This document shows, in pieces, positions 19,401 to 40,400 of a DNA stretch of 64,000 bases. This DNA comes from Owenia fusiformis. Its lineage: Eukaryota > Annelida > Polychaeta > Sabellida > Oweniidae. The notes under the pieces were generated by a model that had not been told where the DNA came from, did not search any database, and worked only from the letters and a program-made list of their open reading frames with translations. The DNA lies in the NCBI GenBank assembly GCA_903813345.2, contig CAIIXF020000004.1, positions 1,280,513 through 1,344,512 of the forward strand. The letters run 5' to 3'. Both the position numbers and the translations under genes were made by a program. Each line of letters opens with the position of its first letter. The stretch's first letter is position 1.

Positions 19401-22400
19401 TAACACACAAAATCTTATCACACTACGGATTTGAATTTGAATTTCATCTTGACTTTTCACAAGACCACAGTCAGCTGCCATCTTGGGTCTCTCTATTGAA
19501 ACCTTTTCTGTGATGTCATACCTTTTTATGTGATGTCACAGTAATAACTATACTCAGAAAAGTTGCATCTTTCACACTGATGTCAAAACCTGTTTCTATG
19601 GTTGCAAATCTTTCAGATAAAACATATGACATTTCAAGATGAAATCTAACTACATCCATGGATTTTACGATCAAATAAAGTTGCCCCGCCTACCGATTTT
19701 TGACGTTACTATAGCAACCGCCATTTCCACAACCATTAGAATTAATACATAATCTTTGCAGAGTTGTTACACAGATACATTCTGCATCGTCTGTGAAATT
19801 TTCATGGAAAAATATAAAAAACTCTTAAAATGAGAGCAAAATTATGAGAACTTATTGAACGACCTGGTAATATGTCATCTAAATATCAGATGGGGGAGGG
19901 TCTTTGAATACCAGAAGGGGAGGGAATTGAGGGAATCTATATACCAGAAGGGGGAGGAATCTATTAGAAGAGGGAGGGAATCTATAAACCAAAAGGGGGA
20001 ACCGAATATATATACCAGAAGGGGGAGAGAATCTATACAGTATACCAGAAGGGGAGGGGGAATCTATATACCAGAAGGGGGAGGGAATATATATACAAGA
20101 AGGGGGAGAGAATCTATACAGTATACCAGAAGGGGAGGGGAATCTATATATCAGAAGGGGGAGGGAATCTATATACCAGAAGGGGAAAGGGAATATATAT
20201 ACAAGAAGGGGGAGGGAATATATATACAAGAAGGGGGAGGAAATATATATACAAGAAGGGGGAGGGAATATATATACAAGAAGGGGGAGGAAATATATAT
20301 ACAAGAAGGGGAGGGAATTTATATACAAGAAGGGGGAGGAATCTATATATCAGAAGGGGGAGGTAATCTATATACCAGAAGGGGAGGGAATCTACAGGGT
20401 GTCTGGAAAGTAAAGATACAAATACTCTTATTTTAAGAAATTTGGTTTTTTTGAAATGAAATTGCTACAGATTGTAGAGGAACAATATTACAATATATCT
20501 ACCAACTTTCATCACATATAGTCTAAGTGTGTTCAAGTTACAGTTGTTATGGTTACGGATGTGAGAGGTATGCGGAGCAGTTCCAGAACAACGCTAAAAA
20601 GTGAAAAATTGCTAAAAGACAACCATTTGAAACAGTATTTTTTCGTTGTATTTTCTATATATGTTTTGTTTTGTTCATCATTGTATTATTGCTGCCATAG
20701 GCGTAGCGCCCGGTACGCTGGGTACGCACAGGCGTACCAGATGGTTGCAAATTCGCTCCAAATACAACCAAATCTAAATTTTCCTGGGGGAGAACCCCCA
20801 GAGACCCCCCTAAACGCTGTTTTTTGCTTCGCTCAACTCTCTTTCTCACGGTGGTGTACTACTTAGAAATATAGCGCTACACCCATGGCTGCTATAGTGT
20901 TTTCTTTTATATAATGATCTCATTGCTACATATCAGAACTATGTTATGTCACTAACCAGTATAATGAAAGAAATATTATACAAGTGCTCAAAAGAATGGT
21001 CCCTGGCCATTAGTAGGAAAGTCAATATTGCATCTCCACAATGCACCAATTCACAAAGCAAAAAACAAATCTTACAATGGAGTGTCTTGACATTAAACCT
21101 TTCTATACAATGCCCCATGTTCACCTGATAAAGCATCTTTAGACTTCTACCTTAATGACCATTTGAAAGCAATATTTGTTAAAAGTTCAACATACAAATG
21201 AGACTCAGCTGGAAGCCAATTTCATCAGCGATCTGAGAGATGGACAGCAGCGGTTTTGTCAGGTCTTTGAATCGCCGGTCAAGATGCCCCAAGAATGTAT
21301 AGATAATGGGAAAAATACTGAATATTCAATGATAGTAGTAATATGAAATGATCAGATGTTGCATTACTAATCCCTATGCTGTTGTGGTACGTACTTTGAT
21401 ATAATATAGGAATAGATGGTGGAGTGCCAAGATCATATGAGCAGGAAAGAGATTTGTAGAACCCAGTTGTGACTTTGCTCCACTTACCCTCGTCTCCCAT
21501 TACCATAACAACCATAACTTTTTCATTTTGAAACTGAAAGTCATGACAGTTGCAGGATATATTGTTATAATGTCATTCTACATTCTGGAGCAATTTCATC
21601 TCATAACAGGTAAATCTCTTGAAATTAGAGCATTTGTATCTTTACTTTCCGGACACCCTGTATATACCAGAAGGGGAATGATTTATATTCCAGAAGGGGA
21701 AGGTAATCTTTATATCAGAAGGGGGGGGGGGGTCTAGGGGGGATGGGACATTTAAATTCCAGAAGGGAGAGGACATTTGAATATCAAACAGGAGGATAAT
21801 TTGCAATTAGATATTGTATACAGAGTCATTGTAGCCTTTTTGTAAACTCCACCACTGAGTAAAATCAAATTATTTGAAATTAATAATGATCCTGTGTTTA
21901 TATTTCAGTCACATCTGGACAATATTGAATTCAATGCAGTAAACGTAGACATATCAGAAAAACTTGCACAAGTAAGTATAGCACTGTCTTGCATGATAAA
22001 AACTCAATATATAAAAAAGTTGCGCTTGAAAAAATGACCATATAAATGAGAGTCACTAAGAATATAAGTGCCAAAGTTTTTATCTAAATGAGTGAGATTA
22101 GCCTCTCTCGCTGTTAAAGGCCCCATGAAAAGTTTTAAAATCTGATATTTGTAGTATATATCTGCCATGACTTAAGAATTACTGTCCAAAAAAATTGGAA
22201 ATTTGAAAATTTGGATTTTTTTGTCTCTTGTTAATTTTTATGTCACCATCAAAAATGGTGACATATTGTTATGGTTTTTGTGACGGTGGTTGGTGATAGG
22301 AGGTTGGTGGTTGGCGTCTGTAACAATTAAATGGTGTTGACATTTTTCATGTTAATATTTTTCTGTTTTCAGCTCTCAGACTCATTAAGCCAGAAATTCC

Positions 22401-25400
22401 GTAGCAGAATTAAAATAACTGAAGATTTAACTAGGACTATTCAGGGCGAGTTTGCAAATTTGAACCCCAACAATGATGTTGAACAATGTTGTACAATTTC
22501 CATTGAGGAAAGAAATGAGCAATTCAAGCAAGGGGTAAGTGATTTGTTCAATTTGTGGATTTTTTTTTTATTCCTTTTTTTATTCATAATCGATGAAGGC
22601 CTTTGAATTTGTGCCTTGATTCTGCAGAATCTACCATAACTCTTTCTCATCTTGTTCAGTTTCATAGCTGTATAATTACAAAATGTACAAGTATTCAGGC
22701 CTGAGGGCTCTCACCAGGAAGTATTTAGGATGTGGTGGAAACATCTTCAGCATAACGGTTCAATTGTGATAAATCATATTTATGTGTTACATTTTATCAT
22801 TTTTTCATGCTATTATTGTGTATTTAATCAAGTTTATACTGGAAATATCATGATTTGCCAATAGGTTGTGGTTGGAGCTAAATAGAGTGTGGTGGTGATG
22901 CGCCACAGTCTAATAGCATAGTGAGAGCCCCGAGTCTCTGTAGAACAACATATGGAAATAAGACATTAATTTTTTGAAATATTTAATTGTAATTTCAAAA
23001 TTTTTGTTTGTTGATATACACTTTCTTTCCATCCCTGTTGTAGGTCGACTTCAATAAATTGTGTATGCGGGTCTCCGGATCAGCGGCAGCTCCAGATACC
23101 CGAACTTACCTTAATGAAGCAATTTTGAACAAAATGAAAAAAAATCTCCAGGACTATCCCACCTTAAAGTGGCAGTATTTCGGCAGTGAAAACGGAGTGT
23201 TTACAAAATATCCAGCGTCATATGATGCGGGATGTGATGAATATGATAATAGGTTCAGGTATGGAAATTATGATTAAGCGCAGATTAATGAAATTAAATG
23301 TACCTGTACAATGTATTTTCTCACATTTTTCTAATATTTGAATGAAGCTATGAATATTTAAAATAGAAAGTATTGTTTAAACTTTTTTAAGATGAAAACT
23401 GAGCAAAAATGAGACTATTTTTCTCAAAAAGTCATTGCCTTGTTAAAGACAGTCACATATTCTATTATACTTGTTTGCTTTTATATGTTAACATTGTATA
23501 TAAATCTTAATTGTATACATTATAGACTATTATAACAATATCTATGAAATGAATATGCTAACTACCGGAAGACGGTTTTCAGATATTACATATAGTGATC
23601 TCCACAGGATTTTTCTCAAGTGGGTGCAAAATTCTCATTCTAGACCAAAATTGGTCAAAATATGCCAACTTTTCCTGATTTTTCTCAAATGGAAATGGAT
23701 TATCAGGTGGGTGCAATTCTGTTATCAAAATCTCAGGTAGGCACTGCATCTATTTGTTTTAAAGCTGGGGAGATCACTGGGGCATATATGTACATGAATA
23801 TGTTGAAATTTCCAAAACAGATTGTGGCAAAATACCGATTATTACCTTGCAAGTCACGTCAGTATATTATTTTTAATTTCAATACAGGCCATGGTATGTT
23901 GAATCCGCAACGCCACAATCCAAAGACATTGTTATCGTTATTGATAAGTCTGGATCTATGGCAGGTGGATCTCCCACACGTCTCATAAACATCGCCAAAG
24001 ATGCAGCAAATAGTATTCTAGACACATTGAATCCCTCCGATAGGGTGAGAAAGCAGATGGAATTTCCCAAAAATGCCACAATGGTCATGTTTTGAAATGC
24101 AAAATACAGTATAAAAGAGTGGAATTGGTGAGGAATAAAACAAACAGATTTAAAGTGAAGACTTTAAATTGTATTGAAATACCAGAAAATGAGACGTTTT
24201 ATTCAAATTTTAGAGAGAAATGAGAGGAATTAGCAAGGAATAAATTAAACGGGCATGTAGTCAACACTCTAAATTGTATAGAAATGCAAGAAAATCAGAT
24301 ACTTCATACAAATTTTAGAGAGGAAAAGAGTGGAATAAGCAAGGAATAAAGTCAACAGACATGTAGCCAACACTCTAAATTGTATAGAAATGCAAGAAAA
24401 TCAGACATTTTATTCAAATTTTAGAGAGCAATTGAGTGGAATAAGCAATATTCAAATTTAAACTTTACCTTTTTTGAATGAGAAGACAATGTGTCAATTC
24501 AATATTTTTATCTGTAAAATAATTTGAATTGAATATTCCATTAATAAATTGGAATCAATGTACACGATCGAGTCATTTTCACACATTCCACTCCATTTTG
24601 CATTTCAATCCATCATGATTTAGTTTTATTTAGTATTTGTACAGTCCTAATTAGTAAGATACAACACCATAGGCTAACTACATAATCCAGCATTTGAGGT
24701 GAAAATTCCTGCAAATCAGCCCACATTTTACCATTGAAATGGTAACATGAAATGAAACAATGAACCCATACAGGAGAATCCATATATCTGTATGGGTTAA
24801 AATACAGGAGTCTGCACCTCTAACCCGAGACTGTAGACATGTATGTAGTGCTATAAGTTAAATAAAAATAGTTTAATCGCCCCGATGAAAATTTCCTCAG
24901 AAAACATTTGATACTGTTCTGCAATATGAGGATTCCAATTGCAGAGAATTGTATCAGTTATATTGGGCAAAGGCATTGTAATCTTGCATTTAGCTGGGCT
25001 AGCCACTGGACATAATCGGGCTAGCCACTGGACATAAATAGCTCTACATACATGATAATACTGTTTTTCGTATGATCTGTAAAATGAAGCCTTCTGATTG
25101 GTTTGTTCTTGTGCTGTACCAATCTGTAATGCTACTGAGATTGTCCCCATTGATCATCTCCGTCGCAATGCAGAAAATATTGGTACGGAGGGGACATTCT
25201 CAGTAGCAATACAGAGGATCATACGATAAAAACATTATAGAATGATTTGAAGTGCAATGCAGCATATATTCTGCTCTCGATATTCTGTATTGGCACTCGA
25301 CTTCGTCTCGTTTCAATACGGAATTTCTCAAGCAGAATATATCCTGTATTGCACTTCAAATCATTCAATAACTTATAGTATATGTGTGACTTCACTGTGA

Positions 25401-28400
25401 TAAATTCTCTGCACTCTGTTTCTCCTAATGCTCTTTGCATAGTAATACGAGGCACCTCATAAACGCCATACTCTAATCATTTTTTATACACATCTCATTA
25501 AGACAGTTCTTCTACTAACCACACAGTAAAGGAATGCATCCTTGATATGAGCCGGATCTATAGTGGGATGACATTTGACCTGTTCACCCATGATGTCATC
25601 AACAAAAACTCTGATGTAATAAAGCATGAGCTAGCTTCTTTAATCATTAGTTCTTGCTTGATGTTACTTTAGGCCATGGTATGCTGAGGCTGTCGTCCCT
25701 GCATCTAAAGATGTTATTATTGTCATTGACAAATCTGGCTCTATGGGTACAACCTTAATGGATACTGCCAAGAGAGCTGCTAACACTGTACTGGAGACAA
25801 TGAATCCTAATGACAGGGTAGGTTACAGTTTGACAGGTCCCAAAACCCCAAAATCATGTTTCTCATAAAGCATATTGGCTACAGTTGACAGGTCCCTCAA
25901 ATTATGTCTCTCTTAAAGCATATTGGCTACAGTTGACAGGTCCCTCAAATCATGTGTCTCATAAAGCATATTGGCTACAGTTGACAGGTCCCTCAATCAT
26001 GTCTCTCATAAAGCATATTGGCTACAGTTGACAGGTCCCTCAAATTATGTCTCTCTTAAAGCATATTGGCTACAGTTGACAGGTCCCTCAAATCATGTCT
26101 CTCATAAAGCATATTGGCTACAGTTGAGAGCTCCCTCAAATCATGTGTCTCATAAAGCATATTGGCTACAGTTGACGGGTCCCTCGAATTATGTCTCTCT
26201 TAAAGCATATTGGCTACAGTTGACAGGTCCCTCAAATTATGTCTATCATAAAGCATATTGGCTACAGTTGACAGGTCCCTCAAATCATGTGTCTCATAAA
26301 GCATATTGGCTACAGTTGACAGGTCCCTCAAATCATGTCTCAAAGCATATTGGCTACAGTTGACAGGTCCCTCAAATTATGTCTCTCTTAAAGCATATTG
26401 GCTACAGTTGACAGGTCCCTCAAATCATGTCTCTCATAAAGCATATTGGCTACAGTTGACAGGTCCCTCAAATCATGTGTCTCATAAAGCATATTGGCTA
26501 CAGTTGACAGGTCCCTCAAATCATGTCTCAAAGCATATTGGCTACAGTTGACAGGTCCCTCAAATTATGTCTATCATAAAGCATATTGGCTACAGTTGAC
26601 AGGTCCCTCAAATTATGTCTATCATAAAGCATATTGGCTACAGTTGACAGGTCCCTCAAATCATGTGTCTCATAAAGCATATTGGCTACAGTTGACAGGT
26701 CCCTCAAATCATGTCTCAAAGCATATTGGCTACAGTTGACAGGTCCCTCAAATTATGTCTATCATAAATCATATTGGCTACAGTTAACAGGTTCCTCAAA
26801 TCATGTGTCTCATAAAGCATATTGGCTACAGTTGACAGGTCCCTCAAATCATTTCTCTCATAAAGCATATTGGCTACAGTTGACAGGTCCCTTAAATAAT
26901 GTCTCTCATAAAGCATATTGGCTACAGTTGACAGGTCCCTCAAATAATGTCTCTCATAAAACATATTGCAGCTATACAATTGACAGATCCCCAAAGTCAC
27001 AATAGTTAACAGTTTGACTGGTTCCCAAAATCACACGTTTCCTAAAAGCATATGAGATACAGTTGACAGGTCCCCAAAATCACAAGGAATATTTCCAAGA
27101 GGGAAGGTTACAGTTATTATCATGTGTCCCCTAATCCATGTGGTTGACAGGTCTCCTAAAATCACAACGAATCCTGATAATGGGGGATTTTAAAATTCAA
27201 GGGTTCCAAAAACATAAACCTTAGAATAATAAGATTGACTGGTCCCTTGTATCATGGGTCAACATGTCCCTTCAATTGTTTATAAAGTTTGACAAATATG
27301 CATATGATAAGTTAGTCCCAATAATATAGCAATCAATGGGTTATATTTTGAATGTGTTGCAATTTGACAGGTCCCTGATTTCATAAATTACACAATAACA
27401 GATCCCCAATATAATGGGTTGCAATTTGACAGGTCCCTGATTTCCCAAATTTCATAATAACAGATCCCCAATATATTGGGTTAAAAATTGACAGGTCCCT
27501 GAAGATTTCAGTATTGATTACTCATAATTGGCAAATGACCTCCTTCTCAAATCTTTTTTTCTGTTTTTTTTCCAATATTCATGATTTTGACCATAAATCA
27601 AAGAATTTCCAATATATTAAAGTTTTAGAATAGAGTCCATGCAGTTTATATATTCCTTCATTTATTCAATATTATATATTCATGTATTCATTCACAGACC
27701 TGTCAAATTGTAGTCTATTTTGTTGTAGCAGCTAAATGTCTCTCTCTGTCTTGTTGAAAGGTCTTGTGTTATAGTCTAACATAAATTATAAAGGTTGTAT
27801 CCATAATCAGGCTTGCATATTCCATTCATATGGCCCAATGGGATCTAAAATCAACAAATATCCATGATATTCATTTATTTTGCAAATTGCCACAATTCAA
27901 ATTAGTCTTTCTGGTACAATTACAATGAATACTACAGTTACACTTAAAGGGTTCCGATTAGCATCCCGTATAAAAACAATATGGCGGCTCCAGGCAAATC
28001 AACTGGATCAGTCCACTTTTAAGAAATAAGGGGAGTTCTGTAAAATCCAGTTTATTGAAATTGTCTTTGAGATAAAGTAATCCGTTTATAATGATTTTGA
28101 AAACGTTATCCAAAGAGTGATTGCGTTCAAAGAATACATGTACAACAGCCAATATAAATCCTTGTATTAGAAACCGCTTTGTCTTGCTTTGTTTCATTTG
28201 TAGGATATTCCATATGCAAAGCTGTGTGCTATTACGTTATGGGGAAATTTAGATGCCAATTTTTCCTTATTGTACACAAATAAAAGATCCTGAAACTTCA
28301 CCCATAAATGTGGAATTGATTTGTCAAAATAGAAATCACCCTTTTATAAATGTGTGACGATCTATAATATACTTATGCTATATAACAGTTAGAGGTGTTG

Positions 28401-31400
28401 ACACAACGACCTCAAACCTGTGAACCCTTGAGTATTATTCCGGGATCGGGCCTTTTATACTAAACGGTGAGCAACACCAGAAACGAGCGTTCGATTTGCT
28501 AAACGATATGCGTCACCCTTTAATGTTCCAAAAGCATACTATCATTATTTTCCAAACATGCAAAGACATTATTTGATGCAATCTTAGCATTTTATCAACC
28601 TTAAATAGTTCTTCTGATAAAACTTAATAGTTAAATATTCAAAAGAATCATCAATAAATGTGCAAACAAATTAATGCATTTTAACACATTTTTAATTTTC
28701 ATCAAATTCAATTGGTATGCACGGGCGTACTCTGCTTAACAGGCACTACGCCCATGAAAGCAAAGAATGATGATTTACTGAAGTCAAAGGCAAATTAGCT
28801 GTTTGAATTTTGTTATATTGGGAACAGGGAGAGTGTCAAACTATGATTAAGAATTGAACTTTGTTCACAACTTTTTATGTTTTGACAGCATCCCTCAATC
28901 CATGTTTTGGGTCTCATAGGTCAATAAGGAAATATGCAAACAAAGAGTGATGCTTCCCTTTAACTTAATTTTAACATTTTTATGTAACCACCACAACTTG
29001 TGACAGTGTCTGACTTTCGATGTCTGTAACAAATGGCTGGTGGTGACATATTGCATGTTCAATGCCTTGTTTATCTTTATATTTATTAATCTCTAATGCG
29101 TACACATTTTAGTTAATTTGTTTCTTTGGCATAACACTATTTTAGAACATTGATTTAAAATTGAATAAATTAAAAATATGAAGAAAGGTTTCAAAATAAT
29201 CTGATATAAATCTTTTTTTAAATTACTGTTTGAGACTTGATACAGGATATTGTGAGATCTAACGTATGTACATGTAGTATACTAATTATCCAAATGCTTA
29301 TGATAAATAAAGATCGATTTTCCAGTATACGTTTTGTATTTCTAATCAGTTGGGTGTAATTCTGAATATTAAATGTAGTACATGTATTCCAGTTTATGTA
29401 ATATTCCACTTTATGTTTTTGTAATTACAACAATTGTTTCCAGGTGGGAGTTGTTGCTTTTTCCTCAGAAGCCACCATCTTAGATGGGAACCTCGAGAGC
29501 AAATTTTGCTTCGGCAGTCAACTGGCTCTTGCGACACCTCAGAATATAGCCATTATAACAAGAGATGTTAATGAGATAGTCGCTGATGGTGGAACATCCT
29601 ATGTTCAAGCATTAGACAAAGCGTTCTCACTGTTGCATAAGATTGACAGGGAAACAAAAGGGAATTCAACAAAAAGAGGTTTGTGTATTGCATTGGATTA
29701 TCGAGCCAACATTATGCCTTTAATTAAATTAACACATTTTTAGTTAGAATTTCAAACACATTCCTAATTTAATGTGTTTTTACAACAGCAAAAAAAATTC
29801 AAATCATAATTGTTAAAAATGTTCAAAAATTTTAGACTTATTCAAATTTAATGTGTTTTTACAAAAAATCATTCTTAATAGTATACTTATAAAATTTCTA
29901 ATGCATTTCAACTTAAATTGTATACAGTTACTCCGGGCCTCTTAAATAAGTAAAAATACAATAAATATGATAACTTTCCAGATAAAGTAATCCTATTTCT
30001 CACTGATGGAGTTCCCACTGAAGGGACTGATGCTAATGGACGAAGAATTATTCTCAATAAGATCAGAGATGAAAATGCCAAGATCAGGAATGAAGTGGTC
30101 ATCATGACCTATGGTATTGGAGGAGGTAGGATATCAAATTTATCCTATGGAATATATAGAGGTTATACCAAGGGGGAATTATATGTTTATCTTCAAGGCA
30201 GATATTGTATTGTCGCAGCTTGGGTGACTTTTTTATTTATGTTTTGACCACTATGATCAAAATAAGAAAAATCAAATAAAAAAATTAAAAATGATAATTT
30301 AATTCAAATGAAGAAATAGAAATGAAATGAAAGGATAGGGTAGGCATCAATATGGTGACCTGAATTCAACAATGTTTTTCTCTTGAGCCAATTATTGAAA
30401 ACATTCTGTAAAAAACATGATCCTTTATGTAATGTTGACTGATTGACAACAATTTAATGCGGAAATTATTTCTATATTTATTATATAACTGTTTTTTTGA
30501 ATTTTTTTGTTTTTAGTGCAATTGTTTTTTGTTCCTTTCTACCAAACCCGATCCTTGTTGGAACAAAATAGCATATACAGCATTTTCTTAGACCTCTTAA
30601 TATTTTAGTTATACAAAGGAAATTTTGGTTGATATAACAAAATGTATGCAAAAAATTAAAACAAAACCCCTAAAATGCAGGGTGTTCAAAAAAAAAAACG
30701 CAACCCAACGAAATCGCTATATCTTGAAAAATACAGGTTCAATTATGTTCATATTTTCAGAAAATAAAGAAAAGTCTGTGTATGTACAGGTCCTGTAAAT
30801 GGTTAGTTGTAAAACATGATGCCTTGGACACCTGCTCAAAAGACATTTGTACTAGGAAAATACAAAAAAACGCAGTCAGGGGTGACAGCAACCGCAAAAA
30901 AAATTCATATCTTCCTAACCATAGTGTTTTGGCTCTTAATTTTTTTCATCTTCATTCACTGTACGGTTAATCTGTAGAGTGAAATCAAAATCACTCCAGG
31001 GACTTTACAGTCATGGTTGAAATGCTTTCAAATCGCAGTCAAACGCCCTGGTTCAGTGAGACTTAAGAAGCCATTTTGACCATGACTGTAAAGTCCCTGG
31101 AGTGACTTTGGTGAAACTCCACTATTTCACCACACATTAATGAGGATAATTTGTGCCAAATCTGAAGTGCCAAAACACCATGGTTAGAAATTAATTTGGT
31201 TTTATTGCTGTGGCAGTCACCTTTGACTGCGTTTTCATATTTTCCTAGTACAACTGTCTTTTGAGCAAGTGTCCAAGATATCATGTTTTACAACTAACGA
31301 ACAACATGGGCTATACATACACAGTCTCTGCTTTCTTTCCTGAAAATAGGAACATAATTGGATTAGTATTTTCCAAGATATAGTGATTTCTTTGGGTTGC

Positions 31401-34400
31401 GTTTTTTTTACACCCTGTAGTTGAAAATTAAGATAGCCCTTTTATTTCATTAACAAGACACTTTTTTAAAATCAACCAAAGTTTCCTTTGTACAATTACA
31501 ATATTGAGAGACCTAAACACACAGTGTTTTTGTTGTTTTGTTCCAATGAGGTCCGGATAGATGTTTCATTTCATTCTGAACATAGTGATACCAAGAACAA
31601 AAGAAGTTTACTAAAACAATATAGAGAAAAGTACATATATATTTCAAATTATAATGTTACCATATAAAATATGACCATTAAATTGACGATCTGTAAAATT
31701 TTCAGAATGTTTTGATGACTAGTTTAAGAGAAATGTGTGTTCAAAAAGTTCACCATATCAATACCCGTATCCTTTATTACAGATATTATAGATTTGTAAT
31801 TGTGAATTTGACAAGCTCATTAATTTTAAAAATTGCATATATACATTAACTATATCTGCTTTCAAATTAAGCTGCTGAAAATGCTGGTGCTGAGGCAATA
31901 TTACAAGACATGGCAGAGCAGAAAAACTATGATTCAGCATATGGAGAAATTAGGGTATGAAGCATTTCAAACAACACATTCATTTATCATTTATCTATCA
32001 TGTGACTTTATGAAATCATCACATAACAATAACACATCATGTTATCAAACATTTTGACCTCAACTATGGGATAAGGGGGTGTATTCATTGATAAAAATAT
32101 CTGCATTTATTTTAAGTCACAAATATATCATTGTTTGTCTTTGCAATTGAGGGTTTCATTAAAGGATATTAAGTGAACAACAATGAGATTGTTGTTATTG
32201 CAGAAGGGACTTTCAAACTCAAACAACATTGAAATGTTTGTCTTTGCAGAAGGGGCTTTTCACTAAAGTATCAGATCCGGACACACTTCGTGGAAAGATG
32301 TCATCCTATTATGATTTCTTCAGTGATGTAGAGCACGATAATGCCATCATTACAGTGCCCTATGTAGATGCGTCTGGACTAGGTATGCGATGTTTACTGT
32401 TGCTATGGTGACATATTGTGGCTGACTTTTGTTTTGGGGGATTGCATTCAGCAATTGGTGTTTGGTTTCTGTAACTAAGTGTTTTGTTTTTTTTGTTTTG
32501 TTTTTGCAACCATTTGTTATTGCCTTGTATTGAGACAGACAGCAACTAATCAAATGTACAATTCTATAAAAACACTTTTGATATTCAACTTCATAATACT
32601 CATAAGCTAGATATTCAGCTTTTATTATATTTCTAAAAAGAGTGAAATCTTGATATGATGATGAGCCCATATTTTTTTATTTTAGTTTCCTAAGATAAAT
32701 CAATGAATGATGCCTTTTATTAGACTTATTTACAATTGCTTTAAATGAAACTGAATTAATGTTTATTTTGTCCGTTTAACTAACAGGCCTGGTGACATCA
32801 ATCTGTCTCCCTGTGTTCTACAATGCTAATCTTAAGGGCGTGGCTTGTGTTGATATCACAATGGAGGACCTCCTTGCAGACGTCATCTATTTTCGCACAG
32901 GTGAAAAATCGTACGCATTTATCATCGACAAAACTGGGCGTACAATGATGCATCCATTACTCCCAAAGCCATACTCGATTAGTGACGCACCGATTTTTGT
33001 CCCAATTGAAAGCTTAGAGAGAACGGCTGAGGAGAATGGTATTTTAACTTCAATGAAAAATGGGACAAAAGGATCTATGAAAATATCTAATACGATGGTA
33101 TTCCCCAGAGGGTCAACATCAATGGATGGAGTCTACACAGAGAGTGTGCAGTCAACTTACATGTGGCAGCCGGTATGTTGAACTTATTATGTCACCACCA
33201 GAAGTGACATATTGTTATAGTCTTTAACATTTTTGTTCATGGTGTTTGGCATTTGGTATTTCGTTATCTGTAACAAATGGCAGGTGGTATCAGATTGAGA
33301 TGATTCTTGAATGGTTGGGGGTATAAGACATTGTTTCCTTACATGTAAGTTCATAATTTGGGATATTTGGGATTTGTTTTCCTTGTGACTGGATGTAGTC
33401 CTAAATGTTTCATTTTCTTGCTCTGTTTCATAACACTTTTTACTTTTAGTATTTTCTCTTTGGCACTTATGCCAACATATTTATTTCTCTACTAGGTATC
33501 ATGGAGAACTCAAAACGTCAAAATCGTTTCATTCTAATTTAGTAAGCACCCACAACTTTAAAAGACCAGTGGTTCTATTTTCATGCATGAAAATCAAAAT
33601 GGAGTTTTTAATTCACCAATTGTGCTGTAATTCTAACATCCCCATGCTTCTTCATTTAGATTAATGAGACTGTGTGTATTGTGATTAAATTCAATCTCAT
33701 ATCACCAATTAGCTTAAATTCTTACATCACCCATGCTTTTCCATTTAGATTAATGGGACAGATTTCTCTGTGTGTATTGTGATGCCAGATGATGATGTCC
33801 AAAATGCCATGACAACGCAACCAAAGATATCCTCACAAGACTTTAAATACCATAGGATTGACAAGGTTCCTAGCTCATCCCTTTGTAAAAACATCAAAGC
33901 CCCTGCACTTAAAGGTAATTGCATCTTAATTTGGTGGGTTAAACCAAGTTGTTTTTCTGTTCATATTTTCAAACATTCAAAATAGACACATTTTTTCTGT
34001 GTATAAATTAAATTACAATAGGTTTATGAGACCATATATGAATTGTATTGCATACAGCAAAACATGACAAAAATGAATAGGTATATATCACGCTTGCCAA
34101 AACTTTCTCAGACCTTGTATCTTATATTTTACGTGTCCATAATTAATTTGGTTGTGTTTTTCAGGTTCACCAAGCATATTTTTTGCAGCCAAATCATTTA
34201 AGAAGCCGTTTGTCTACCTGGATGGAGTGGAGACACAAAATGAGATTGATCAAATTGTTGGATATATGACTGACATTACAAACAATATACCTGGTTTTAA
34301 GGTACTTCACAACCTGTCTTATTATTAGTTTTAATAACTGATATAACTGGTCATATACCTCGTCAACTCATTATTCATCCCCAAGTCAATCTATTCCCAA

Positions 34401-37400
34401 ATCAATTCATCCACAAGTCCACATGCCCTTATCCCTAATTCAATTCATCTCTTAGTCACCAATTTAACAAAATTGAAGTCAACTCATCCCTTAGTCAACT
34501 CAAAGATGTACCTGAATATAATTAATAAGTATGATATGACATTTATGTTTTATTCTTTTGCATTCAGGATGATATCAGAAATACAGTTTCTGCATTAGTT
34601 GAGACAAAGAACATTTGGACCCAGGATGTCCAGTCGATATGGCACTATGTTGGGACAGAAAACGGCATAATGAAACTTTTCCCAGGAGCCTTGAATAATA
34701 AAACTTATGACCCTACTGTGAGACCATGGTAAGTGTGATAGGGAAGTTATTGTTTTTGTGTTTTGAAAATTAATGAAAACGATTAAGAAATCCTCCTCAA
34801 TGGAATATGATAAAACTACAATCGAGATTAGCTACGGAATTTGTATTATTGTAAAAAAGAAATGCTTCTTGGAATTTGACAAATATCAGAATTACAATTC
34901 CGGATTTTCAGATTGAAAAAAAAGATCCATAATCTAATTTATTACACATCAACGTCCTATCAGGATGTTCACCAGTAATGTATAATTTTCATGTTTTATT
35001 TTCTAAACCTTTTCTTCTGTTTTTTGCATTTAGGTACAAAAGAGCAGTGAGTAATAGAGGCAAGATTACATTGAATGCACCGTATGACGATGCTCTTGGA
35101 CTGGGATATGTCATAACACTCAGTCATACACTTTAAACCTTTTCTTCTGTTTTCTGCATTTAGGTACAAAAGAGCAGTGAGTAATAGAGGCAAGATTACA
35201 TTGAATGCACCGTATGACGATGCTCTTGGACTGGGATATGTCATAACACTCAGTCATACACTTTAAACCTTTTCTTCTGTTTTCTGCATTTAGGTACAAA
35301 AGAGCAGTGAGTAATAGAGGCAAGATTACATTGAATGCACCGTATGACGATGCTCTTGGACTGGGATATGTCATAACACTCAGCCATACACTTTAAACCT
35401 TTTCTTCTGTTTTCTGCATTTAGGTACAAAAGAGCAGTGAGTAATAGAGGCAAGATTACATTGAATGCACCGTATGACGATGCTCTTGGACTGGGATATG
35501 TCATAACACTCAGTCATACACTTTAAACCTTTTCTTCTGTTTTCTGCATTTAGGTACAAAAGAGCAGTGAGTAATAGAGGCAAGATTACATTGAATGCAC
35601 CGTATGACGATGCTCTTGGACTGGGATATGTCATAACACTCAGTCATACACTTTAAACCTTTTCTTCTGTTTTCTGCATTTAGGTACAAAAGAGCAGTGA
35701 GTAATAGAGGCAAGATTACATTGAATGCACCATATGACGATGCTCTTGGACTGGGATATGTCATAACACTCAGTCATACACTTTAAACCTTTTCTTCTGT
35801 TTTTTGCATTTAGGTACAAAAGAGCAGTGAGTAATAGAGGCAAGATTACATTGAATGCACCGTATGACGATGCTCTTGGACTGGGATATGTCATAACACT
35901 CAGCCATACACTTTAAACCTTTTCTTCTGTTTTCTGCATTTAGGTACAAAAGAGCAGTGAGTAATAGAGGCAAGATTACATTGAATGCACCGTATGACGA
36001 TGCTCTTGGACTGGGATATGTCATAACACTCAGCCATACGCTCTATGATGGCAAGTAAGTCACTGAGATTGATTTTTCCGAATTTATTTGAAACATTTTA
36101 AATGTACTACATATATGTAATATCCATATTAGTTCAAGTAAAAATTCCATAGCATTGATCATTTCAGTAAATATAATAATAGCTCAGCAATCTCAGTCTT
36201 TTAAAAATGAACAAAATAAAATTTTCTGTATATATTACGCCATAAATCATAAAATCTCGGTCTTTTTATTCCTTTAATAAATACTGTAATTGTAATAGAA
36301 AATGTGTTTTGTGTAAATTTGTAAACAGATATTTTATCTTTTAGGTCGGGAGGAAATCATAATGAAAATGATCCAATATTTGGTGTGATGGGGTTTGATT
36401 TCAACTTTATGATATTCTACAATAAACTCACTGCTCTCTACCCCATATGTGCAGAGGATGACTATAGGTAAATTGCCGCTAATGTTTTTAAAATTGCCGC
36501 TAATGTTTTTGAAATTGCCGCTAATGTTTTTTATAAAATGTTGGCAATCAATTGCATGTCTATTATTGTTGACTAAAGGAATTTTATGTAATATATAGGT
36601 AAATTGATTTGGTAAATTGATCAGTGAAAATAAAGAATAATATTTAGAGGTTATGTCACTATGACGTGAAATATGCCTGAGTTCTCCCAATATAGGCCGA
36701 CCTTGGGAGGCTCTATATTTGGGCAAGAACGAAGGCATATTTCACGTCATAGTGACATAACTGATGTATTACATGCCTTTGTTCCCATGGTTACTTTGTA
36801 TTAATGACGTGACGTCATGATATTATCATGGTTATTAAAGAAATCTAATATCAAAACGAGGTAAACGGGCTATATCGGGGTAATCGGGCAATATCGGTGG
36901 ATATAGCTCGCTAACTTTCCCATTGACTTCCATACAAATGCTTCGCTAGGTATGTAATACATGTACATAGAAACTTCATTTGCCTCAGTACCCTTTGAGG
37001 TTTTGGCCTCATTTACTTACAACAGATGGCTTCACAGTTTTAGAGCCACTGTTTGGCACTGCATAGCTTTGACCAAAGATTAATGCTATTGACAAAAATT
37101 TAGTGTTGTAATTTTCTGACTTCATGTTCTAATTGTGCTACTAAAACCAATGAATTATTCGTATTTCAGAAAATTTACAGCCTTACTATTATGAATATTC
37201 CCTGAACAGCCTTACTATTATGAATATTCCCTGAACAGCCTTACTATTATGAATATTCCCTGAACAGCCTAACTATTATGAATATTCCCTGCTTGTTTTA
37301 ACACTAAAAACTTGGGATTTTGATCAGTACCAGCGAAAAAATATTGATGACTGAAAATATTTGATGTAATGTCTTGTTTTATATTTTAGCTGCTTTGTTA

Positions 37401-40400
37401 TTGATAGCAGTGGATTTGTTGTAATGCATAAAGACTTTGTGAGCTGTTCAAATGAGAACCAACAAATCGAAGGTCTACATATAACAGTGAAGGTAAGTTT
37501 GCTGTAGTACCCTATACTAGAGGTGTCAAGTATTAACCGGTTAACCGGTTAACCGCCGATAATGCCTTGACCGGTCTGAGTTTTTATGGGCGGTTAGTTG
37601 ACCGTGTATAATTCTGTTATTTCCCGCGCTTATTTTGCATGCTAATCCGTTTGGTTTTATGGTGTCAGTTTCACGTAAGCTACTCATACATGTCATAAGT
37701 CCCATAACTCCTTACAAACATCCAATCAGCAACTTTAATCCCTGCCACATTGCTTTCCCGCGCTTACTTTGCATTTTAATCTGTTTGTTTTTCAAGCGTC
37801 AGTTTCATGTGAGCTACTCATGCATACATGTGATAGGTCCGATAATTCCTTACAAACATCCAATCAGCAACTTTAATCCCTGCCACATTGCTTTCCCGCG
37901 CTTACTTACATAGAATAGCGTAAAGCTTGACGAACGTAAAAATAAACGCCGATATATCATTTTTCCAATTTTTTTCAACTTTCAAGATCGAAGATGAAGA
38001 TTTCATTTGAAATCATCAGTTCAAATTTCCCGCCGGTTAACCGACTTTAACCGGTAAAAACCCCCGGTTAACCGGTTAATGCTCAAGCGGTTAATTGACA
38101 CCACTACCCTATACACTAGTCAACGAACTAGTGGACATAGGTGGACCCCACAATATGTGAAAAAAGATTTGGGCCAAAAATGGGCCTTACTTTTGAGAAA
38201 TTGTTCCTTGCCACATACAATTAAGTATTTGCTTCTTACGTAATTTTAACATGTACTAGATAATCCTTTTTGCACCAAAAATAGGGTAGTGTCATTTGAT
38301 ATGGTTGATTTAGTCATCCATGTCAGATGTGTTATGTAAATGGCGAATAATGCTTAATTGGTCAAGAGTGTCAGTTGCTATGGTCACTATTTTATATGTT
38401 GATGGTACTGTAATTTGATTGGTCAAAAGTCGTAAATTTTGCCATTTTATAGGAGCCTTCCATAGCAACACATATGATAAACAACAATTATATGAGAAGA
38501 CAGAAGTGCATCAACTTTGAGTCGATTGAGGATCATTACACCTGGCTAATGAATAGAGGAAGCATAGGGGTGAGTTGAAGTGCTATCAATCATCATCATC
38601 ATCATTATCATCATTAGGACGTAGTGGACTAAGCCAGTGATGTCGTCCTCTCATTACTTAAGCCACCTGACTTCTCAATTCTTTTTACAAGACCAAAACA
38701 AAAGAAACCTGTAAACATTATGTGACAAATATGTAGCTGTTCTTGACTTAAATAAATATATATTAAAAAAAAAAAAAAGAAACCTATAGCATATAGTGCT
38801 CCCTCTTCAATGTCATATATGATGAAATAAATTGTTAATCTATAAAAAAAATGTCATGCTTTAATATTCAGTAACCCTGTGAGTACCTTGAATACCCAGT
38901 GTGACTGAATCAAAAATATCATAGATATTATCAAAAAATATTATTCCAGTTTTGCTGGGCCTGCTTTTTGTCACCTTGTAAATCCTGACCTTTTTGTTAT
39001 TAGTTTTTATCATAAACTTTTCATTATAATATTATTATAAAATTACTTGCCATGCTAAAATTATTATTGCATATTTATTTTTCAGAATAATGGCATTGAT
39101 ATGATTGATTCTGTACCTGCCTATGAGCTTCATGCCATAGATTCAACTAACGCATTTGTGGGAATCAAGAAAAACTCTGCATTAGGCCTTGAACAATGCA
39201 AATGCTCAGCAACGGTACGAAGAATTAAGTTTTATTTTATTATTTGGAGTTTTTGAAGTACTAAATTTATAATTTTAAATGCAGCTTTTTTTAGTTGACA
39301 GTTTGAAATATTTTAAGGGAGGTAGAGACTTGAATTAAAGTTTTCACCTCAATATAAATGGTTTCCAAAACTATAAGGATATAGTACTATTGATAAATTT
39401 TAACTTTTAACCATTAAAAACTCCAAGATGATATGTACTGAAGTGTTAAATGACTATTTTTATCAGTGAAAGATATGTTTTGTGAAATGTCTTTGTTACA
39501 CTTACAGTGTCAGTGACACCTTTGCATTTAACTACTATTTTTCTTTTAGAGTTATTCCTCCATTAGTACTACAAGCCCTATCAATGTAATTTTATTTTTA
39601 TGCTTATAAGTAACATTATAATGGTGGCCATCCTCATGTTAATTGATTCATTTAAAGGTGCAACAATTAGTGCACGATCATGGACCAGTGTCAATATATA
39701 TTAAGTTTGGATATTTTATCAAGACTTACATCTATTTTTATTATCTACAAAGAAACCCCCTAGATAAACATTATTTCAGCTGATATTCCTCTTGAAACAT
39801 AGTGGATCTTAAAATATAAAACTGGATTGCCGCTTTTTGAAGCTTTGAACTAAATTTACACTTATTAATGCTGAAATTGATAGTTTAGCCTTGATAGCTC
39901 AGAAAAAGTTAAAATTTTCCTATTTTCTCTGTACAGGCCTTGTTGCTCCTTAAAGTATTTGGAATATTTTATCAGACAGTTTTGAATAGGAACTTTGGAG
40001 AGAATGAAAATTCAATGAAAACTGAATTGTTCTGCCACGGCTAAGATATGTAACTTTTGAAGTACCAGTCACATTAGTGTTCTATATAAACCAATATTAT
40101 CTAAATAAATAAACAAAAACAATTTTGAAAATCATGTAATTGTCCATTCTGTCTATCCATGATCATTATCCAATATTTGATATAAATATGGCCACCATCA
40201 TTATTAATGCACATATTGTTTAATCAAACATAATACGTTGTTTTACCTCACGAGATCTTTCACATATAAGTCCTCAAGCCAGGTCATATACTTCTAGTTT
40301 CCTATTACTCTTTTTTATAACTCAATTCTGTTTTAATTTTCTCATTCTTGGTACAATGCAACTACCTGTGTTTAATACTTGTTGTTCAATGTTTAATCAC

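What the first reader, a model, noticed from the sequence alone, without database searches (positions are those of the whole stretch)
35004..36043. A coding exon and its 3' splice site amplified into eight identical-length 130-bp units
Each unit repeats the intron tail, the AG acceptor and about 100 bp of exon 14. Seven of the eight end in an in-frame TAA a few codons after the duplicated segment; only the eighth has a donor. The splicing machinery faces eight near-identical acceptors and must use the last to make full-length protein. Using any earlier one as a terminal exon would give a VWA-Cache protein truncated in its second Cache-like domain and lacking membrane anchor and tail, potentially soluble. 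Near-identity means recent expansion or ongoing homogenisation, so copy number may vary among individuals.
Basis: partly seen in the sequence, partly recalled or inferred. Interest (0 to 1): 0.85.

Follow-up and report, generated by a model that had tools for sequence, protein, structure and literature searches.

The report
Splice-site minisatellite in a CACHD1-like gene
In an invertebrate cell-surface gene, a 130-letter stretch holding the end of an intron and most of the next exon has been copied eight times in a row; only the last copy can give the whole protein, so the locus is a natural test of how cells choose between almost identical splice sites, although similar repeats are already known in amphioxus.

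Summary
The array is real in the assembly: eight 130-bp units at 35004-36043, variable at only five positions. Each carries a 30-bp intron tail (branch-point-like TAAAC, pyrimidine tract, AG) and 100 of the 111 bases of one exon. Units 1-7 lack a donor and run into an in-frame TAA made by the unit junction; only unit 8 continues to the donor at 36055. The gene is a CACHD1 homologue (best solved match 8s7c). Two paralogues carry the exon once.

By anatomy this is a "mirage", a minisatellite spanning an intron-exon boundary, described in amphioxus Adh3, TnC, globin and PGBD5 genes. Globin BflGb6 has nearly the same design, with 6 and 3 copies in two haplotypes. I therefore favour a recent, probably copy-variable minisatellite that splicing tolerates by using the last acceptor. 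That choice is inferred: no transcript was available, and the rule preferring the acceptor nearest the upstream donor predicts the opposite. A soluble truncated isoform has no positive support. The genome does not look like amphioxus (about 34% GC, twelve large contigs), so mirages may extend to another phylum.

The parts
34568..34728 (+). upstream exon ('exon 13'), ends ...CCATG before donor GTAAGT
   Evidence: open frame, homology to CACHD1 and to paralogues on C2 and C5; donor scores above 39 of 42 comparison donors, a set that includes it
34729..35003 (+). single-copy part of intron 13
   Evidence: one place found in the assembly
35004..35133 (+). unit 1 (T at position 21); acceptor AG 35032-35033, exonic part 35034-35133
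35134..35263 (+). unit 2; its first three bases TAA (35134-35136) are the in-frame stop that follows unit 1
35264..35393 (+). unit 3 (C at 121); in-frame TAA 35264-35266 follows unit 2
35394..35523 (+). unit 4; in-frame TAA 35394-35396 follows unit 3
35524..35653 (+). unit 5; in-frame TAA 35524-35526 follows unit 4
35654..35783 (+). unit 6 (A at 79); in-frame TAA 35654-35656 follows unit 5
35784..35913 (+). unit 7 (T at 21, C at 121); in-frame TAA 35784-35786 follows unit 6
35914..36043 (+). unit 8, native exon end (C121, G127, C130); in-frame TAA 35914-35916 follows unit 7; acceptor AG 35942-35943
35944..36054 (+). the one complete copy of the exon (111 bases), followed by donor GTAAGT at 36055
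   Evidence: only unit with a downstream donor; open frame into the next exon
36276..36281 (+). AATAAA in intron 14 with a GT-rich stretch after it: candidate poly(A) signal for any truncated form (another AATAAA at 36215)
   Evidence: pattern only; use untested
36345..36467 (+). next exon ('exon 15'), needed for the full-length protein

Best explanation
The array is a recent intron-exon-boundary minisatellite of the kind called a 'mirage' in amphioxus. A duplication with about three bases of shared sequence (CTA) at its ends joined the exon near its 3' end to the intron tail near its branch-point region, making a 130-bp unit with a whole 3' splice site and no donor (inferred from the junction). 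Slippage or unequal exchange then raised it to eight copies and shuffled variants between units (shown: all four combinations of two variant sites; the mechanism is inferred). Splicing most likely tolerates it: exon recognition pairs the donor at 36055 with the acceptor that gives a 111-base exon, i.e. unit 8, and units 1-7 become a longer intron tail (inferred, with reported regular splicing of amphioxus mirages as precedent). Leakage to earlier acceptors would insert n x 130 bases with an in-frame TAA and most likely be degraded. Copy number probably varies between individuals (inferred).
For: Eight sharp-edged units of equal length with five variable positions. Junction reads ACACTTTAAACC against native exon ACGCTCTATG and native intron TTTTCTAAACC: shared CTA at the break. 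All four combinations at positions 21 and 121, and a mean of 1.24 differences per unit pair (0.95%) among units 1-7. Homologous exons on C2 (L017, L018) are found once each, with AG|GTA at the start. The unit acceptor is ordinary in strength: above 18 (C21 form) or 24 (T21 form) of 34 comparison acceptors. Acceptor 8 gives a 111-base exon, within the 83-386 of the other 14 exons placed; acceptors 1-5 give 1021-501 bases, acceptor 6 371 and acceptor 7 241. BflGb6 has nearly the same design, and that paper states that Adh3 data and its own globin RT-PCR suggest no interference with regular splicing (PMC3087553, section 16 read); PMC3902484 says the same of Adh and TnC (passages). Minisatellites are common here: 10.5% of the window, and 3.4% of 12 x 8 kb, one stretch on each of C1-C12.
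Against: No transcript was available. For intron-defined splicing the acceptor closest to the upstream donor (unit 1) is preferred (Reed and Maniatis as reported in PMC9225289, passages), which would stop the protein. The intron to acceptor 1 is 305 bases, only a little above the 200-250 bases at which that paper places the change to exon definition; the other introns placed are 250-1746 bases apart from one of 5399. Units 1 and 7 carry a slightly stronger acceptor (8.1) than unit 8 (7.0). Acceptors 6 and 7 also give exons of ordinary size. The amphioxus authors themselves allow that mirage signals could give aberrant transcripts. Copy-number variation was not seen: one locus, no second haplotype.
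Confidence: 0.74

Rival explanations
1. Leaky acceptor array that sets dosage: a share of transcripts uses acceptors 1-7, gains the TAA and is degraded, so the copy number tunes how much full-length protein is made.
For: Acceptors are near-identical and of average to good strength; every early choice ends at the same residue; acceptor 7 gives a 241-base exon, within the size range of the other exons, and an intron-proximity rule would favour early units.
Against: Amphioxus mirages are reported not to disturb splicing. No sign of selection can be seen in so young an array.
Confidence: 0.15
2. Functional truncated, possibly soluble isoform made by ending the transcript in or after the array.
For: Acceptors 1-7 truncate the protein in the second Cache-like region before the membrane anchor; AATAAA with GT-rich DNA lies at 36276 in the next intron.
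Against: No AATAAA or ATTAAA inside the array; the candidate signals lie beyond the donor. Reading through the donor after unit 8 would give a stop (TAA within GTAAGT) without any array, so the array is not needed for such an isoform. The Cache-like region would be cut short within its Pfam match.
Confidence: 0.04
3. Recursive splicing: each unit reads AG|GTACAA, so exon 13 could be joined to unit 1, regenerate a donor at the junction and hop unit by unit to unit 8, giving the normal mRNA.
For: Every unit has AG directly followed by GT, and each hop would remove exactly 130 bases and restore the same junction CATG|GTACAA.
Against: The donor scores 2.6, below all 42 comparison donors (lowest 5.0), though those donors were picked for likeness to a consensus. 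The GT comes from Trp-Tyr codons and is also present in the single-copy paralogue exons on C2.
Confidence: 0.03
4. Assembly artefact, or a rare broken allele of the sequenced individual.
For: Near-identical tandem copies are where assemblies err; only one haplotype is held.
Against: Six distinct unit sequences, sharp edges, and a length (1,040 bp) that a single long read would span. How this assembly was made is not known to me.
Confidence: 0.08

Closest known systems
'Mirage' minisatellite of amphioxus globin gene BflGb6 (PMC3087553; section 16 read)
   Same: [quoted passage not shown] similar unit length (150-160 against 130 bp) and copy number (6 and 3 in two haplotypes against 8); inner units homogenised while an edge unit escapes (here unit 8 differs most).
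   Different: Here all units have one length and at most 4 differences per unit pair (81-100% identity there); a different gene; a genome that does not look like amphioxus; no cDNA or second haplotype seen here.
Lancelet PGBD5 60- and 108-bp repeats over splice sites (PMC3902484; passages)
   Same: Tandem repeats containing splice sites, with copy number differing between assemblies (2 or 7, 3 or 6).
   Different: Imperfect repeats, over both 5' and 3' splice sites; gene and animal differ.
Intron gain by tandem duplication of an intron-exon segment, potato RdRp (PMC4974935; passages)
   Same: The copy brings branch site, pyrimidine tract, AG and part of the exon.
   Different: One duplication there, with a cryptic GTAAG donor recruited to make a new intron; here no strong donor was recruited and units 1-7 lead to a stop.
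Repeated AGGT-containing exon segments outside lancelets: fission yeast 24-bp repeats (told in PMC4974935) and human internal tandem repeats (PMC2812944, passages)
   Same: Intragenic tandem repeats that change or create introns, in organisms other than amphioxus.
   Different: The yeast case is exonic and short; the passages of the human paper that I saw do not describe an array of whole acceptors like this one.
Human CACHD1 (PDB 8s7c, 9eq6), as host gene
   Same: phmmer E 1.4e-103 over query residues 5-773.
   Different: The human gene structure was not compared here.

Membership tests
[quoted passage not shown]
   30 intron bases + 100 exon bases per unit, eight units
Mirage (boundary-spanning minisatellite) | repeats carry splice signals, with the authentic boundary at the cluster edge | tested here: met
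   AG|GT in all eight units; native donor after unit 8 only
Mirage (boundary-spanning minisatellite) | signs of repeat turnover (exchange or homogenisation) | tested here: met
   all four combinations at two sites, 0.95% mean divergence; only three variable sites among units 1-7, so modest evidence
Mirage (boundary-spanning minisatellite) | copy number differs between haplotypes | tested here: inconclusive
   single locus in the assembly, no second haplotype held
Mirage (boundary-spanning minisatellite) | mRNA spliced normally | not testable with these tools
   no transcript data
Mirage (boundary-spanning minisatellite) | so far described in cephalochordates | tested here: inconclusive
   12 sampled stretches have 32.6-35.5% GC; contigs C1-C12 are 31.9-62.2 Mb and sum to 477.5 of 498.3 Mb. 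Amphioxus near 41% GC with 19 chromosomes is recalled. No GFP match, but that search had no ringing control; no COX1 match. Owenia fusiformis (505.8 Mb, 12 chromosome-scale scaffolds; passages) fits in size, unproven
Tandem-duplication intron gain (Rogers model) | AGGT in the duplicated segment | tested here: met
   TTTAG|GTAC in each unit
Tandem-duplication intron gain (Rogers model) | GT of one copy used as donor and AG of the next as acceptor | tested here: inconclusive
   GTACAA scores below all 42 comparison donors; use not testable
Tandem whole-exon duplication (mutually exclusive exons) | each copy has both acceptor and donor | tested here: not met
   no donor of normal strength near the exon end in units 1-7; the one GTRAG inside a unit (GTGAGT) scores 4.8, below all 42
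Recursive splice site | strong acceptor joined to a regenerated strong donor | tested here: not met
   junction donor 2.6 against lowest comparison donor 5.0 and median 8.8

The most novel reading that the evidence does not exclude
The array works as a copy-number rheostat: its seven decoy acceptors divert a fraction of transcripts into one premature stop and decay, so individuals with different unit counts make different amounts of full-length CACHD1-like protein, and length change at this minisatellite is heritable variation in gene dosage.
Probability: 0.12. Interest if true: 0.72.

Novelty: new member of a known kind. Interest (0 to 1): 0.42.

Why it matters
Eight near-identical 3' splice sites in series, of which only the last gives a whole protein, are a natural version of the classical duplicated-splice-site experiments: cross-intron proximity predicts unit 1, cross-exon proximity predicts unit 8, and one cDNA experiment would decide. 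If the genome is not amphioxus, as composition suggests, it also shows that boundary-spanning minisatellites are not a cephalochordate peculiarity, and it captures an early stage of a possible route to new introns.

Tried and rejected
Searched for a second haplotype or other copies: none found. Looked for further exon arrays through family matches: protein kinase 145 rows, P450 108 rows, ABC transporter 25 rows, read by eye. One pair of matches to the same profile positions 178 bases apart (C10:2256896) proved to be two complete, diverged exons, not an array. These searches score only the best candidates (124 of 876, 92 of 719, 19 of 194), so they bound nothing tightly.

Asked whether boundary overlap exceeds chance: arrays cover 13.4% of the span 22373-45576 (this array included), so about 4.4 of 33 tested boundaries would be expected inside arrays; 1 of 33 is (35944). 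The overlap therefore needs no special cause. The boundary set leaves out the unplaced exons. Array density varies: 0 to 20% among the 12 sampled stretches and also among the four paralogue loci.

Tried to name the animal: COX1 no match; GFP no match and no ringing control. Owenia fusiformis fits in size and chromosome number (passages) but is unproven.

Splice scores: candidate sites were chosen near homology edges with a human-like matrix typed from recall, which favours consensus-like sites; 42 of 51 donor rows and 34 of 53 acceptor rows were kept by eye for the matrices. Dropped donors: the seven rows of units 1-7, a mis-assigned row (e6) and a duplicate. Dropped acceptors: eight array rows, a duplicate, and ten that looked mis-assigned or doubtful, mostly low-scoring. 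One of the ten is the L018 exon-14 acceptor (TTTGAG|GTA), whose position I nonetheless cite as homologous. A Pfam scan gave dCache_1 slightly below its cut-off (44.2 against 45). On the C5 paralogues the homologous exon gave only weak matches (E about 0.5; none), so the single-copy statement rests on the two C2 paralogues. In L017 a further weak match of the exon-14 peptide lies in the earlier Cache exon, not beside exon 14.

Literature searches on the kind. Their listings showed no array of this many whole acceptors outside lancelets; most subscription papers are not held, and Canestro 2002 on Adh3 was not read (known through PMC3087553 and PMC3902484).

Full report
What is there. The window lies at C4:1280513-1344512 of a 498-Mb assembly with 525 contigs. 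At 35004-36043 stand eight units of exactly 130 bases. Positions 1-30 of a unit are the intron tail TAAACCTTTTCTTCTGTTTT(C/T)TGCATTTAG; positions 31-130 are the first 100 of the 111 bases of the exon. Units vary only at positions 21, 79, 121, 127 and 130, giving six distinct sequences. Flanking DNA shows no further copy (29 and 33 of 130 positions match). Searches with two units and with the flank found no other place in the assembly.

The gene. I placed 15 exons of one chain (22373-39214) plus an alternative exon and a terminal exon that, read by eye, holds a membrane helix and tail. The joined protein has VWA and Cache-type matches and its best solved match is VWFA and cache domain-containing protein 1, E 1.4e-103 (8s7c). 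The repeated exon encodes YKRAVSNRGKITLNAPYDDALGLGYVITLSHTLYDGK in the second Cache-like region. Homologous exons occur once each in two paralogues on C2, starting AG|GTA after the Trp codon split by the intron; on C5 the matches are too weak to use. The first exon(s) and anything between 37492 and 44682 other than 39086-39214 were not placed.

Consequence of each acceptor. Acceptors 1 to 8 imply introns of 305, 435, 565, 695, 825, 955, 1085 and 1215 bases and exons of 1021, 891, 761, 631, 501, 371, 241 and 111 bases. Acceptors 1-7 all stop after the same 693 residues of the partial model, because the exonic part runs into the TAA that opens the next unit. A unit length of 130 is not a multiple of three, so retained units are not protein repeats. 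In the acceptor-7 form the stop lies 138 bases before the exon 14-15 junction (arithmetic), and further in the others, so decay is the expected fate (general rule, recalled). No AATAAA or ATTAAA lies in the array; AATAAA occurs at 36215 and 36276 in the next intron.

How it arose. The junction ACACTTTAAACC fits a join of exon ...ACGCTCTA and intron ...TTCTAAACC over the shared CTA, followed by two changes common to units 1-7 (the changes may instead have happened in unit 8). Positions 21 and 121 show all four combinations among the eight units, and units 1-7 differ by 1.24 bases on average, 0.95%. This speaks for exchange between units and for youth, though three variable sites are few and a consensus error could mimic them. 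The surroundings are rich in minisatellites: 10.5% of the window against 3.4% of 96 kb sampled at 12 other places. Given that, one of 33 boundaries inside an array is not more than chance (about 4.4 expected).

How it most likely works. The array acceptor is an ordinary one (above 18 or 24 of 34 comparison sites, by form). So the choice must come from context. Under exon definition the donor at 36055 should favour unit 8; under intron definition the upstream donor should favour unit 1 (after PMC9225289, passages: the cross-exon tests in those passages were on 5' sites, and the 3'-site statement is its report of Reed and Maniatis). The introns here are moderate (305 bases to acceptor 1; 290 bases after the exon), so anatomy alone does not decide. 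The precedent leans one way: for amphioxus mirages the Adh3 data and globin RT-PCR are said to suggest no interference with regular splicing, although the same authors allow that the repeated signals could give aberrant transcripts, and TnC is said to behave likewise. I therefore take last-acceptor use as most likely, without direct evidence. Recursive hopping through AG|GTACAA is unlikely: its donor scores 2.6 against a minimum of 5.0 among 42. Each unit also holds GCA|GTGAGT (score 4.8, likewise below all 42), which if used would leave a 13-base piece and shift the frame.

What is known. Boundary-spanning minisatellites were named 'mirages' in amphioxus, with length instability and a proposed role in making new introns (PMC3087553, section 16 read in full; PMC3902484, passages). 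The structure here meets the three structural features that I could test; copy-number variation, splicing and taxon remain open. Whether it is the first of its kind outside cephalochordates I cannot say: the animal is unnamed, though about 34% GC and twelve contigs holding 477.5 of 498.3 Mb do not fit amphioxus as I recall it. Other intragenic repeats with splice signals are known in fission yeast and human genes. My searches cover open-licence papers only.

Verdict. What remains of real interest is an unusually clean natural competition between eight near-identical acceptors, and the untested possibility that unit number tunes dosage.

Noticed in passing
window 23888-24044 and 25673-25817: Two versions of the VWA exon carrying the metal-site motif DKSGSM (58% identical where aligned), both in phase with the same upstream (ends 23258) and downstream (starts 29444) exons: probable mutually exclusive exons in the ligand-binding domain.
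   Followed up: partly
window 25851-26968: A 48-bp minisatellite of about 24 copies begins 33 bases after the donor of the second of these exons; its unit loosely resembles the sequence just after that donor (GGTTACAGTTTGACAGGTCC), so it may be a related boundary-near array.
   Followed up: partly
window, whole: Minisatellite-rich stretch: 6,746 of 64,000 bases in arrays of period 10 or more and score 100 or more, about three times the density of 12 sampled places.
   Followed up: partly
L021 2400-2711 (C10:2256899-2257210): Two complete, diverged copies of a kinase exon (GSK3-like, name recalled) about 180 bases apart, each with acceptor and donor: a tandem, probably mutually exclusive exon pair.
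   Followed up: partly
L031 2675-3248: A 126-bp repeat of 4.5 copies with a 174-residue stop-free frame; 126 is a multiple of three, so it may be coding.
   Followed up: no
window about 36645-36765: Inverted repeat around GTTATGTCACTATGACGTGAAATATGCC and its complement, in the intron after the next exon: looks like a small hairpin element (seen by eye).
   Followed up: no
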